NCBI RefSeq assembly: GCF_000334895.1
Contig: NZ_BAFM01000004.1
Location: 62,001 to 126,000, forward strand
DNA from: Halococcus agarilyticus
GTDB lineage: Archaea > Halobacteriota > Halobacteria > Halobacteriales > Halococcaceae
Reading direction: 5' to 3'
DNA length: 64,000 nucleotides
Part shown: piece after piece, positions 29,589-53,338 of the stretch
How the letters are laid out: each line of letters starts with the position of its first letter
How positions within the stretch are numbered: the stretch's first letter is position 1
Notes under the pieces: model-generated
Told to the model about the DNA's origin: nothing
Databases searched by the model: none
What the model saw: only the letters and a program-made list of their open reading frames with translations
Translations under genes and position numbers: made by a program

Positions 29589-29855
29589 TCACTCCTCGAC
29601 GAACCGATCGTAGGCGAGGTCGGCGACCCGCGTCGCGACCACGAGTGGCGGGAAGACCGAGAGCGCAGCCAGAAGTGCCAGCGTGAACTCCCGACTCGAT
29701 GGTGTGCCCGATGCGGTGAGGCGTTCGACGTACGCGAACAGTGCTTCGTGGAACAGCGCGACGAAGGGGGCGAACACCACGACGACGGCGACGAGCCTGG
29801 TCGCGGTTCGTGGGTGGACGTCGTGGACCGACCGCGGTGGTGAGGGCGCGGTCAC
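29589..29855 (-). CDS. small two-helix membrane protein
   Basis: 88 residues from GTG 29855, whose GTGA overlaps the stop of the PH-domain gene. The hydrophobic segments are about 19-40 and 57-75. It is coupled to the PH-domain protein and probably works with it. No family is recognised. It lies convergent with btuD, two bases from that gene's stop. Confidence 0.6.
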   Translation of the reverse strand: MTAPSPPRSVHDVHPRTATRLVAVVVVFAPFVALFHEALFAYVERLTASGTPSSREFTLALLAALSVFPPLVVATRVADLAYDRFVEE

Positions 29856-30394
29856 GACGTGGCCTGGCCCGCGCCCGCCACCCCGCGCCCCGCGGTCGTG
29901 GCGGCTGACTCGCTGAGCTGTGTGGTCACGAGCCCGGTCACGTGCTCGGGATCGGGGACGTCGCTGAGTGCGAGGTTCACGCCGCCCGAGCCGGCCGTGT
30001 ACACCGCGACGTCGCCGTACGAGAGGAGGCGCTCGGTCAACGACTGCTCGAACGCGGTGTTCTGGATCCGGTCGATCGGCACGCGCGTGACCCGGATCGA
30101 GAACACGCCCGTCTTCTCGTAGATCGCCTTCGTCGTGAACACGTACCGGGTGCCCCAGCGGACGAGGTACACCCACGCGACGATCGCGATCCCGAGCGGA
30201 ACGAGGGCGAAGGCGAGCCGTTCGGGCACGCCCTGAATCGTGACCTCGCGGGGGAGCCACGCACCGAGCAGGCTCAGCCCGAACCCCACGAGGATCGCGG
30301 GCGTCGCCGGGGCGAGGCTCGGCGTGCCCGCCCAGAGCACCTCCTCGTCGGCGGTGAGCGGGAGCCACCCGGTCGACTCGACGCCCGAACTCAT
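29852..30394 (-). CDS. PH-domain membrane protein (bacterial PH type, YdbS-like)
   Basis: A 180-residue protein starting MSSGVESTGWLPLTADEEVLWAGTPSL. Two adjacent helices (about 32-50 and 58-76) are followed by a bacterial PH domain beginning RWGTRYVFTTKAIYEKTGVFSIRVTRVPIDRIQNT, the recognisable signature. Such proteins sit at the membrane with the PH domain in the cytoplasm; their ligands are generally unknown. ATG 30394 was chosen because cgtaagtc lies about 27 nt upstream and the first strand fits. Confidence 0.82.
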   Translation of the reverse strand: MSSGVESTGWLPLTADEEVLWAGTPSLAPATPAILVGFGLSLLGAWLPREVTIQGVPERLAFALVPLGIAIVAWVYLVRWGTRYVFTTKAIYEKTGVFSIRVTRVPIDRIQNTAFEQSLTERLLSYGDVAVYTAGSGGVNLALSDVPDPEHVTGLVTTQLSESAATTAGRGVAGAGQATS

Positions 30395-30508: not shown

Positions 30509-30516
30509 TTTTTATC
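30509..30516 (+). promoter_or_regulatory. TATA box of the GT2 transcript
   Basis: The box tttttatc predicts transcription from about 30540-30546. It is too close to the upstream in-frame ATG at 30524, and about 130 nt before the GT2 start at 30647. The first usable start codon downstream is 30546. Confidence 0.5.
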
Positions 30517-30545
30517 TCTCGGCATGGGAGAACCGCCACGATCGG

Positions 30546-30650
30546 ATGCAAGGGACAGCGCTCCGCGGGACGACGATCCGAACCACGAGCCGGCGATCGG
30601 TGCGGAGAGCGACGGCCGTCGCCGCGATGGGGGCCACGGCACGGCCATGA
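30546..30650 (+). CDS. putative 34-residue leader ORF coupled to the GT2 gene
   Basis: Begins at the first ATG after the predicted transcription start and ends in TGA overlapping the GT2 start codon as ATGA. The peptide (MQGTALRGTTIRTTSRRSV...) is Arg/Thr/Ala-rich and basic, unlike normal haloarchaeal proteins, which argues for a coupling function rather than a stable product, or for chance. Same length (105 nt with stop) as the leader ORFs before coxA and the BGTF surface protein gene. Confidence 0.35.
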   Translation: MQGTALRGTTIRTTSRRSVRRATAVAAMGATARP

Positions 30651-31402
30651 CGGCGTCGGGTTCGCCGTCGGTCTCGATCATCATCCCCACCTACAACGAG
30701 CGCGAGAACATCGAGCGCGTCGTCGATCGCTGCCAGGCGGCGCTCGACGGCTACCGCTTCGAGATCGTGGTCGTCGACGACGACTCCCCCGACAAGACCT
30801 GGCAGGTCGTCGCCGACGCGTACGACGGTGCGGAGACGGTGCGGGTCGTCCGCCGCACCGAGGAGTCGGGGCTCGCGACCGCGGTCTCGCGCGGGTTCGA
30901 CGAGGCGACCGCCGAGCTGTGCGCGGTGATCGACGCCGACCTCCAGCATCCCCCCGAGAAACTCCCCGAGCTCGTCGCGGCGTTCGACACCGGCGCGGAC
31001 ATCGTGATCGGGAGCCGCCACGTCGCCGGCGGCGGGGTCGAGAACTGGTCGCTCGCCCGCCGGATCGTCAGCCGCGGCGCGATGGCGATCGCGAAGCTCG
31101 CGCTCCCGCCGACACGGGGGATCTCCGACCCGATGAGCGGCTTCTTCGCGATCCGGCGCGAGATCATCGACGGCGTCGCGCTCGCGCCCACCGGCTACAA
31201 GATCCTGCTCGAAGTCCTCATGAAATGCGAGTACGACCGGATCGCCGAGGTTCCCTATGTCTTCACCGAGCGCGAGCGCGGCGAGTCGAAGCTCACCGCC
31301 GACGAGTACCTCGACTTCCTCACTCACGTCTACGATCTCCGGCGCGACGAGCGTGGCGGATGCGAGCGGGCGATCCCCGTCACGGTCGAAGGCCGGCGGT
31401 AG
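30647..31402 (+). CDS. family 2 glycosyltransferase, dolichyl-phosphate sugar synthase-like
   Basis: A 251-residue GT-A enzyme of the DPM1 type, which transfers a sugar from a nucleotide donor to dolichol phosphate on the cytoplasmic face. Motifs are VSIIIPTYNERENI (1-25), the donor-binding VVDDDSPDKT, and DADLQHPPEKLPEL with the metal-binding DAD, then SRHVAGGGVENWSLARRIVSRGA and DPMSGFFAIRR. It has no C-terminal helices, as in short DPM1 proteins. Start 30647 follows the conserved first strand; a longer in-frame start at 30524 lies too near the TATA box. Confidence 0.9.
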   Translation: MTASGSPSVSIIIPTYNERENIERVVDRCQAALDGYRFEIVVVDDDSPDKTWQVVADAYDGAETVRVVRRTEESGLATAVSRGFDEATAELCAVIDADLQHPPEKLPELVAAFDTGADIVIGSRHVAGGGVENWSLARRIVSRGAMAIAKLALPPTRGISDPMSGFFAIRREIIDGVALAPTGYKILLEVLMKCEYDRIAEVPYVFTERERGESKLTADEYLDFLTHVYDLRRDERGGCERAIPVTVEGRR

Positions 31403-51284: not shown

Positions 51285-53237
51285 TCACTCCCGTCTGGTC
51301 GCGAGCGCCGCCGTGGCCACGATGACCGCGACAGCGACCAGAATTCCGAACCCGGGGCCGTTCTCGCTCGTGGACCGATCCGAGCCGCTTGCGTTGCCGC
51401 CGCCGGACCCGCTCCCGTCGTTCCCGTCGCTTCCGGCCCCGACCGTGGTCGTGGTGACGTTCCGGACCGATACCTCGACGGTCGCGGCGACCGGTTCGCC
51501 GTCGCCCGTCGTTTCGCCCATGGCGGTGGCCGCTTCCGCACTGGTCTCGGCTTCGGCAGCGGTTCCGGCCGCCGTGGCGGCCGATCCCGTCGCTGACGTG
51601 TAGGGGCCGTCCTCGCTCCCGTTCGAGCTCACGAAGTCGAACACGCCGTTGTCGTTGGTGTCGCGGTGGGCCATCACCACCACCGTCGTGGTCTCGTTGA
51701 GCCGCCGGGTGAGCGTCACGGTGACGTTCTCGGCGGTGCCGTTTTCGAGGTGGCTCGACGCACCGAGGACGCTCGCGACGGGGGCTTCGTCGGCGTTCTG
51801 TGTGTGGACCACGACGTACCCACCGTTCGCGAGGGTGACGTTCCGGACGGTGACGGTTCCGCCGGTCGTCGTCTGATCGGCGACGGTGAGTCGGGCACCG
51901 CCGACCATCGGTTCGGGCGCGCTGTTCGGCCGGACGGGAACCGTGATGTCGTCGCTGGTGTTGAGCGGGCCGACCGCGCGCACGTCGACCGTGGTGTTCG
52001 GCGAGGTGTCGGAGAGGTTGAAATCGGTGGCGAAGCTGCCGTTCGGCGCGACGAGGGTGGTGTTGGTCCGCACGAACGACGCGGTGTCGTTGGCCGCGAT
52101 GGTGACCGTCACTTCGCTCCCCGGCGCGACGCTCGTCGTCCCGGTGACGGTCTGGCCGGCGTCGGCGGTCAGCGAGACGTCGCCGAGACCCAGCTCGGCC
52201 CCGACGATGGTGACGTTCGCCGCGATCGACTGGTTGCTCGCGGCGAGGGCGCTCTCCTCGCGCACGGCGAGTTGAGTCTCGAACTCGTCGCCCGGTCGCG
52301 GCGGTCCGCGCTCGAACACCGCACTCCCGGTGTCGACGTTGAGGTAGAGCACGTCGTTGTCGGGGTCGGGGATCGCCCGGATCGAGCCGTTCGCGAGGCT
52401 CCGTGTGAGATCGAGTCGCTTCGGCCGCCGGTTCGTGTCGGGGTTGGTCTGGCGGACAGTGAGGTTGAACATGCCGCGTTCGACGAGCTGGCTGAAGTTC
52501 GCGGCCGCGAACGCGCCGTAGACTCCCGAAACCTTCGACTGGAGCACGAGGACGTCGCCGGCGGCCACGGTGTCGGTGGTGGTGATCCGGTCGTTCTCGA
52601 TTGCGGCCGCGGCCTCGCTCGCGTTCGTCACGCCATCGAAGCTCCCGGCCGGAGTGGTCCACGTCACGAGTCCGTCGGTCGAGCGCTCGGTCAGCCTGAG
52701 TGTCGCGTTGTCGGTTTCGCGCCCGTCGACCGCGACCGAGAGGTTGTACGCGCTGGTGTCGAGGGGAGCGTCGAGCCGCTCGGTCGTCCGGTTCGTCTCG
52801 ACGACGGCGTCGGCTCCGGCCAGCGTGTCGTACACGCGACTCTCGTTTTCGACGGTGCCGGCGAGGTACGAGTTCATCAGGAGCGTGACCTCGTCGTCGC
52901 CGTCGTCGGCGACCGTGACGTTCGTCTCGTAGTTGACTGCACGGCCGCCGATCGTCACCGTGGCCTCGCTCGTCCCGTCGAACTCGAGTTCCACGGCGGC
53001 GATGTCGCCGCGGTCCTCGGCGACGGTCGACCGGTTGAACGTCACGTTGCGCTCACCGGCCGGGGTCGTGTTGCCCGGGGGAGCGGCCGTCCCGTTGGTT
53101 CCCGTGGGTGTTCCGTTCGGACCGGTGGTCTCCTGGGCGCTCGCCGGCGCGAGGAGCGCCACGCCGCCGAACGACGCGAGGACCACGAGCAGCGCCAGCC
53201 AACAGCCGGCAGCTCGTCCGCGGCGGTCGTTCGTCAC
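51285..53237 (-). CDS. BGTF-type surface glycoprotein with PGF-CTERM
   Basis: A 650-residue secreted protein from GTG 53237. The signal peptide (residues 1-34, LLAPASAQ) is followed by a domain resembling the haloarchaeal BGTF surface domain (VTIGGRAVNYETNVTVADD), VLQSKVSGVYGAFAA and further beta-rich domains with an extended DUF7282-like repeat (VTVRNVTLANGGYVVVHTQN). The C-terminus is a Ser/Gly/Asp linker and GPGFG-hydrophobic-RRE, a PGF-CTERM. It is S-layer-like. Probable promoter: the minus-strand box ctttattaga near 53371-53380. Confidence 0.78.
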   Translation of the reverse strand: MTNDRRGRAAGCWLALLVVLASFGGVALLAPASAQETTGPNGTPTGTNGTAAPPGNTTPAGERNVTFNRSTVAEDRGDIAAVELEFDGTSEATVTIGGRAVNYETNVTVADDGDDEVTLLMNSYLAGTVENESRVYDTLAGADAVVETNRTTERLDAPLDTSAYNLSVAVDGRETDNATLRLTERSTDGLVTWTTPAGSFDGVTNASEAAAAIENDRITTTDTVAAGDVLVLQSKVSGVYGAFAAANFSQLVERGMFNLTVRQTNPDTNRRPKRLDLTRSLANGSIRAIPDPDNDVLYLNVDTGSAVFERGPPRPGDEFETQLAVREESALAASNQSIAANVTIVGAELGLGDVSLTADAGQTVTGTTSVAPGSEVTVTIAANDTASFVRTNTTLVAPNGSFATDFNLSDTSPNTTVDVRAVGPLNTSDDITVPVRPNSAPEPMVGGARLTVADQTTTGGTVTVRNVTLANGGYVVVHTQNADEAPVASVLGASSHLENGTAENVTVTLTRRLNETTTVVVMAHRDTNDNGVFDFVSSNGSEDGPYTSATGSAATAAGTAAEAETSAEAATAMGETTGDGEPVAATVEVSVRNVTTTTVGAGSDGNDGSGSGGGNASGSDRSTSENGPGFGILVAVAVIVATAALATRRE

Positions 53238-53338
53238 GGCTCACTACCGACGCGTCGACACGTCGCCGCTCCGGCCGCCGCCGTGTCCGTGGAGGGCGAA
53301 CACGAGGACTGGAAGGGGGCGTTCGATTCTGGCATCAT
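53234..53338 (-). CDS. putative 34-residue leader ORF coupled to the BGTF surface protein gene
   Basis: ATG at 53338 lies about 8-9 nt after the transcription start predicted by the box at 53371-53380. TGA overlaps the GTG start of the surface protein (GTGA). The peptide starts MMPESNAPFQSSCSPSTDTA and is 34 residues, the same length as the leader ORFs before coxA and the GT2 gene. It could be a chance ORF. Confidence 0.35.
   Translation of the reverse strand: MMPESNAPFQSSCSPSTDTAAAGAATCRRVGSEP

What the first reader, a model, noticed from the sequence alone, without database searches (positions are those of the whole stretch)
30509..30650. A second 105-nt leader ORF ends as ATGA on a GT2 gene
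Seen: TATA box tttttatc, an ATG at 30546 about 30 nt later, 34 codons, and TGA overlapping the GT2 ATG. The peptide is basic, unlike genuine haloarchaeal proteins, so the act of translation rather than the product may matter. Caution: GC-rich DNA keeps alternative frames open, and an upstream in-frame start (30524) exists for the GT2 gene.
Basis: partly seen in the sequence, partly recalled or inferred. Interest (0 to 1): 0.65.

Follow-up and report, generated by a model that had tools for sequence, protein, structure and literature searches.

The report
Short leader ORF coupled to glycosyltransferase
In this salt-loving archaeon (Halococcus) the message for a sugar-transfer enzyme seems to open with a throw-away 34-codon reading frame whose stop codon overlaps the enzyme's start codon, so that making the enzyme probably depends on ribosomes first translating the short frame; the same layout recurs, better conserved, on surface-layer genes.

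Summary
In detail: TATA-like tttttatc 30509-30516, ATG 30546, 34 codons, TGA 30648-30650 overlapping the GT2 ATG 30647. It is probably not chance. Two other Halococcus genomes, one clade with the window, keep the TATA-ATG spacing (37 nt from the T-run start), the open frame (35 codons) and the 4-nt overlap, although GT2 starts with GTG there and the leader is about one third diverged. In one of them the GT2 frame has no other ATG/GTG/TTG start. The rival start 30524 is not conserved and lies too close to the TATA box. The other six Halococcus orthologues start in frame at the leaderless position with an N-terminal extension; one genome of a sister genus gained the leader layout separately. Neither frame shows amino-acid constraint. 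Best reading: an ancestral in-frame extension fell out of frame and GT2 is now made by termination-reinitiation, a mechanism shown in Haloferax (PMC6728339). No expression data exist here. The window's other 105-nt leader, on an S-layer-like gene, is kept in 11 of 11 genomes (93-108 nt) with sequence near randomised between subclades.

The parts
30509..30516 (+). TATA-like promoter element tttttatc
   Evidence: Sequence; the T-run and the 37-nt spacing to the leader ATG are identical in L009 and L010, and a T-run is also present 31-32 nt before the in-frame GTG of the six other Halococcus orthologues.
30538..30541 (+). Predicted transcription start (inferred)
   Evidence: TATA-word to start-codon distances peak at 28-30 nt in this genome; not measured.
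30546..30650 (+). Leader ORF, 34 codons, TGA overlapping the GT2 start by 4 nt
   Evidence: conserved layout in L009 and L010 with 35 codons.
30626..30633 (+). Block gatggggg inside the leader: second leader-frame ATG (30627, a 7-codon mini-ORF to the same stop) and a G-run 13 nt before the GT2 start, possibly Shine-Dalgarno-like
   Evidence: 8 of 8 identical between L001 and L009; also present in L010.
30647..31402 (+). GT2 gene (dolichol-phosphate-mannose-synthase-like), 251 aa from ATG 30647
   Evidence: PF00535; 5mlz; third codon positions vary about 5 times as much as the first two against L009.
30524..30526 (+). Rival in-frame GT2 start, judged unused
   Evidence: Not an ATG in L009/L010; 13-15 nt after the TATA word.
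29852..30394 (-). Divergent bacterial-PH-domain gene bounding the promoter region
   Evidence: PF03703.
53234..53338 (-). The window's other 105-nt leader ORF, ending GTGA on the S-layer-like gene 51285-53237(-)
   Evidence: 11 of 11 genomes keep a 93-108 nt leader with a 4-nt overlap.

Best explanation
The promoter at 30509 makes an mRNA whose 5' end lies a few bases before ATG 30546 (inferred). Ribosomes start on this near-leaderless AUG, read a 34-codon leader whose peptide is unimportant, terminate at UGA 30650, and the same ribosome re-initiates on the overlapping AUG 30647 to make the GT2 enzyme (termination-reinitiation; inferred). The layout arose when the leaderless start of an ancestral gene, which in most haloarchaeal relatives opens an in-frame N-terminal extension, went out of frame; GT2 stayed expressed through the overlap, which selection has since kept (inferred from comparison).
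For: Same layout in L009 and L010 with GTGA in place of ATGA. L010 has no ATG/GTG/TTG in the GT2 frame between the upstream stop and the overlapping GTG; in L009 the only others lie upstream of the TATA box. GT2 is under purifying selection, L001 vs L009 mismatches 4.5/4.5/24.8% by codon position, so it must be translated. The three genomes form one clade (UFBoot/SH-aLRT 97/95 on protein, 83/96 on DNA). Six of nine Halococcus orthologues have GTG in frame 31-32 nt after the T-run. Separate gain in L036: TATA, 36 nt, ATG, 32 codons, ATGA on an in-frame GT2 ATG, while sister L037 starts in frame. Published: 9 of 9 Haloferax volcanii pairs strictly coupled, Shine-Dalgarno motif not essential (PMC6728339, sections 7 and 9 read); coupling needs an overlap or very short gap (PMC10666635, passages). 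In the same genome the S-layer-like gene keeps such a leader in 11 of 11 genomes, with leader identity between subclades mostly near the shuffled level.
Against: No transcript or ribosome data. A neutral leader would keep its ATG, open frame and TGA by chance with probability 0.13-0.15 at 33% divergence, so conservation in the one clade is suggestive only; identity around the leader ATG is 14 of 16, reached by 1069 of 20000 shuffles. No codon-level constraint in the leader frame. The predicted 5' end would leave 5-8 nt before the ATG, and 6 or more extra nt were rare among near-leaderless H. volcanii transcripts (PMC4983044, passages). Most haloarchaeal orthologues lack the layout.
Confidence: 0.62

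Rival explanations
1. GT2 is initiated de novo at ATG/GTG 30647 on an mRNA with a roughly 107-nt untranslated leader; the leader ORF is a by-product of GC-rich DNA and is not, or not usefully, translated.
For: No amino-acid constraint in the leader; chance preservation 0.13-0.15 at 33% divergence; leadered mRNAs are 28% of H. volcanii protein-coding transcripts (PMC4983044, passages).
Against: The AUG sits at the near-leaderless position in three genomes and in L036; the overlap is exact despite the ATG/GTG change; only 3 such layouts in 464 kb.
Confidence: 0.22
2. GT2 starts at 30524 (or another upstream start) and carries an acidic N-terminal extension as in relatives; the leader is only an out-of-frame shadow of that coding frame.
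For: The GT2-frame extension is acidic and haloarchaea-like in the window; 17 of 22 haloarchaeal orthologues read have an in-frame extension.
Against: 30524 is absent in L009/L010 and L010 has no in-frame start at all upstream; 30524 lies 13-15 nt after the TATA word; pN/pS in the GT2 frame, 0.61-0.70, is like the leader frame's 0.73-0.76.
Confidence: 0.08
3. Initiation at 30546 followed by a -1 ribosomal frameshift, for example on the conserved G-run 30629-30633, gives a fused leader-GT2 protein.
For: GGGGG is conserved in all three genomes and would allow re-pairing; both frames are open throughout in L001 and L009.
Against: The exact stop-start overlap would be unnecessary; no constraint on the fused peptide; no RNA structure beyond chance, z 0.09 and 1.41.
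Confidence: 0.05
4. A sensing leader peptide (attenuator type) whose sequence stalls the ribosome to control GT2.
For: Leaders of the clade end in Pro-stop, RP* or EP*.
Against: Peptide not conserved; no structure signal; the L036 leader does not end in Pro (sequence).
Confidence: 0.03

Closest known systems
Termination-reinitiation (TeRe) at overlapping gene pairs in Haloferax volcanii (Huber et al. 2019, PMC6728339)
   Same: 4-nt ATGA overlap, haloarchaeon, downstream gene expected to depend on upstream translation, no strict need of a Shine-Dalgarno motif.
   Different: There the upstream partner is a real gene; here it is a 34-codon frame without peptide conservation. Coupling not measured here.
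uORFs in long 5'-UTRs of H. volcanii (Babski et al. 2016, PMC4983044, section 12 read)
   Same: Small ORF at the 5' end of an mRNA before a normal-sized gene.
   Different: Those are 15-31 aa in 150-250-nt leaders, with low isoelectric points, and no overlap is reported in the section read; here 34 aa, leader about 107 nt, basic peptide, 4-nt overlap.
Leader ORFs of haloarchaeal S-layer-type genes seen here (L128-L171)
   Same: TATA, 36-43 nt, ATG, about 29-35 codons, stop on or just before the gene start.
   Different: Unrelated gene and sequence; far wider conservation than the GT2 leader.
Dolichol monophosphate mannose synthase (PDB 5mlz)
   Same: GT2 catalytic domain, E 2.5e-79.
   Different: The matched chain is 374 aa; the window protein is 251 aa.

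Membership tests
Translationally coupled (TeRe) gene pair | Stop and start codons overlap or nearly touch | tested here: met
   ATGA/GTGA in 3 of 3 clade members and ATGA in L036.
Translationally coupled (TeRe) gene pair | Upstream ORF is translated | not testable with these tools
   Needs ribosome profiling; no codon-level constraint seen.
Translationally coupled (TeRe) gene pair | Downstream output depends on upstream translation | not testable with these tools
   Needs a reporter with an early stop.
Translationally coupled (TeRe) gene pair | Shine-Dalgarno motif inside the upstream ORF (common, not essential) | tested here: inconclusive
   G-run 30629-30633 is 13 nt before the start; conserved block.
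Leaderless haloarchaeal transcript (0-5 nt before the start) | Start codon at the TATA distance typical of the genome | tested here: inconclusive
   Word distance 35-36 against a peak of 28-30, i.e. 5-8 nt of leader.
H. volcanii uORFs of Babski et al. | Low isoelectric point of the small protein | tested here: not met
   7 Arg, no acidic residue.
Attenuator leader peptide | Conserved stalling peptide | tested here: not met
   Mismatches 12/11/12 by codon position, L001 vs L009.
Attenuator leader peptide | Leader RNA structure beyond chance | tested here: not met
   z 0.09 (window) and 1.41 (L009).
GT2 dolichol-phosphate mannose synthase-like | Sequence match to the family's catalytic domain | tested here: met
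   PF00535; 5mlz. Substrate untested.

The most novel reading that the evidence does not exclude
Haloarchaea use 'blank' leader ORFs of nearly fixed length (about 33-35 codons, free sequence, stop overlapping the next start) as a translational gate on cell-surface genes: S-layer glycoproteins across several families, and in this Halococcus clade also the dolichol-phosphate sugar transferase that may feed their glycosylation, so that coat protein and glycosylation are coupled through the act of leader translation.
Probability: 0.15. Interest if true: 0.8.

Novelty: new variant of a known kind. Interest (0 to 1): 0.5.

Why it matters
Translational coupling by stop-start overlap is known between real genes. 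A leader ORF kept for its length and overlap but not its peptide would show coupling used as a regulatory or rescue device in archaea, where haloarchaeal mRNAs are mostly leaderless. The GT2 case also offers a natural before-and-after series (in-frame extension versus out-of-frame leader) among close species, and bears on how start codons are annotated.

Tried and rejected
Start at 30524: rejected on conservation and TATA spacing. Protein function of the leader: no Pfam match, no constraint. Descent of the leader peptide from the relatives' in-frame extension: local alignments against shuffles were inconclusive for both frames. RNA structure: not beyond shuffles. Sigma-70 promoter and terminator scan: nothing found, and not suited to archaea. 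First alignment of orthologues used L010 and L016 in the wrong orientation; redone. First neutral simulation scored the last base wrongly; redone. Literature: searches 'Haloferax volcanii + termination-reinitiation', 'upstream open reading frame + archaea + leaderless + ribosome profiling', 'haloarchaea + uORF', 'S-layer / Haloferax volcanii / leader / 111 / csg', 'Haloferax volcanii + ribosome profiling + start codon', 'S-layer glycoprotein gene + Halobacterium + untranslated region + translation' (0 papers), 'archaea + leader peptide + translational coupling + upstream ORF': in titles and abstract starts I saw no report of these GT2 or S-layer leader ORFs; most listed papers were not opened and the library is partial.

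Full report
Observation. The GT2 gene belongs to PF00535 and resembles dolichol monophosphate mannose synthase, 5mlz. The genus is Halococcus: orthologue L014 lies on a contig of the same length and number as H. morrhuae DSM 1307 contig_96, L039.

Orthologues. Of 10 genomes searched in the genus, 9 hold the orthologue (G008, 72% complete, does not). Three (L001 = window, L009, L010) have a TATA T-run, 37 nt, ATG, a leader of 34, 35, 35 codons and an NTGA overlap; six (L011-L016) have GTG in frame with GT2 31-32 nt after the T-run, giving an N-terminal extension. The three form one clade. In L010 the GT2 frame holds no ATG/GTG/TTG between the upstream stop and the overlapping GTG; in L009 the others lie upstream of the TATA box. 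ATG 30524 is GCG in both.

Outside the genus, after dropping duplicate loci (L039 = L014, L040 = L037, L082 = L119, L044 = L123, L046 = L124, judged by identical upstream sequence), 13 haloarchaeal orthologues were read (L036, L037, L038, L041, L119-L127). L052 was listed for reading but its start motif was not found, so it is not counted. Eleven have an in-frame upstream start 66-183 nt before the catalytic-domain motif; for several of these I did not tie the start to a TATA box. L036 (sister genus of the same family) has an out-of-frame ATG 36 nt after ttatat opening 32 codons that end ATGA on an in-frame GT2 ATG; its sister L037 starts in frame. L122 overlaps GTGA with a 53-codon ORF that has two CxxC motifs (my reading of the translation), probably an ordinary operon.

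Constraint. Leader mismatches by codon position: L001-L009 12/11/12 over 102 sites, L001-L010 10/11/11 over 102, L009-L010 3/1/1 over 105. Fourfold sites of GT2: 42/126, 38/121, 23/127. So the leader is about as diverged as fourfold sites against the window but less so between the close pair (5/105 against 23/127). pN/pS is 0.73-0.76 in the leader frame and 0.61-0.70 in the GT2 frame for the window comparisons: no frame stands out. Neutral retention of ATG, openness and TGA has probability 0.13-0.15 at 33% divergence, without counting indels; the only leader indel is 3 nt, while the stretch upstream of the TATA box has several that are not multiples of three. Identity round the leader ATG, 14 of 16, is reached by 1069 of 20000 shuffles.

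Promoter geometry. In a sample of 186 acidic ORFs, the TATA word starts 28-30 nt before the first in-frame ATG in 9 of 19 word hits, and at 13-27 nt in none (crude gene set). From the word at 30510-30511 this predicts a start of transcription near 30538-30541, 5-8 nt before the leader ATG and downstream of 30524.

Rarity. In 464 kb, 3 genes show an overlapping ATG leader of 60-190 nt with a TATA-like word 24-42 nt upstream; 10 of the 13 TATA-word hits to such leaders lie in the bins 30-44 nt, though most come from the same genes.

The other 105-nt leader. On the minus strand, leader 53338-53234 ends GTGA on 53237-51285, an S-layer-like protein (DUF7827, DUF7282, BGTF domain, PGF-CTERM; its score to the S-layer glycoprotein model NF041335 is below that model's cut-off). 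Eleven loci (L128-L138: the window's genome, nine other Halococcus, one of genus g3; three further family genomes, G015-G017, carry more distant S-layer genes, and four had no match) all keep a leader of 93-108 nt beginning 36-43 nt after a TATA word and overlapping the gene start as NTGA; 10 of 11 leaders end in Pro-stop. Seven of the eleven were compared pairwise: between subclades the leader identity is 0.42-0.59 against 0.34-0.59 for shuffled copies (5 of 17 pairs exceed all five of their own shuffles), while the first 300 nt of the gene are 0.53-0.78 identical. The S-layer genes of G015-G017 (L139-L141) have a 35-codon leader that ends 7 nt before the gene. Among 30 class-wide S-layer loci fetched (L142-L171; 24 gave a readable start), at least 7 (L144, L148, L150, L157, L158, L161, L162) have a leader overlapping as ATGA, others stop within 11 nt, and several have none. 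This supports leader translation as a real device in these archaea, but it is a parallel, not proof for GT2.

Mechanism. Shown: anatomy, conservation, lack of an alternative start in L010, purifying selection on GT2. Inferred: transcript start, leader translation, reinitiation, the order of evolutionary steps. Established elsewhere: coupling of overlapping pairs in H. volcanii, 9 of 9 (PMC6728339, sections read) and its strong distance dependence (PMC10666635, passages).

Verdict. A real feature, most likely a translationally coupled blank leader ORF; a new variant of a known kind.

Noticed in passing
window 53234-53338 (-), gene 51285-53237 (-); L128-L138: 105-nt leader ORF on an S-layer-like gene; a 93-108 nt leader with a 4-nt overlap is kept in 11 of 11 genomes although its sequence is near randomised between subclades.
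   Followed up: partly
L139-L171, upstream of S-layer genes: Shared promoter and leader words (CACAAAGCATTTATAA, then TACCCCTACCC often followed by ATGG) and leader ORFs of about 29-35 codons ending on or just before the S-layer start in many, but not all, haloarchaea.
   Followed up: partly
L036 (G010): Separate gain of an out-of-frame 32-codon leader ending ATGA on the GT2 orthologue in a sister genus.
   Followed up: partly
L122 (G137): GT2 orthologue overlaps GTGA with a 53-codon ORF carrying two CxxC motifs, probably a small zinc-finger protein.
   Followed up: no
L128-L137 and window 30546-30650: Leaders of both gene families in Halococcus end in Pro-stop (RP* or EP*).
   Followed up: no
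L187:8234: Ferritin-like gene with an overlapping 28-codon ATG leader 37 nt after a TATA-like word; the true start may lie downstream.
   Followed up: partly
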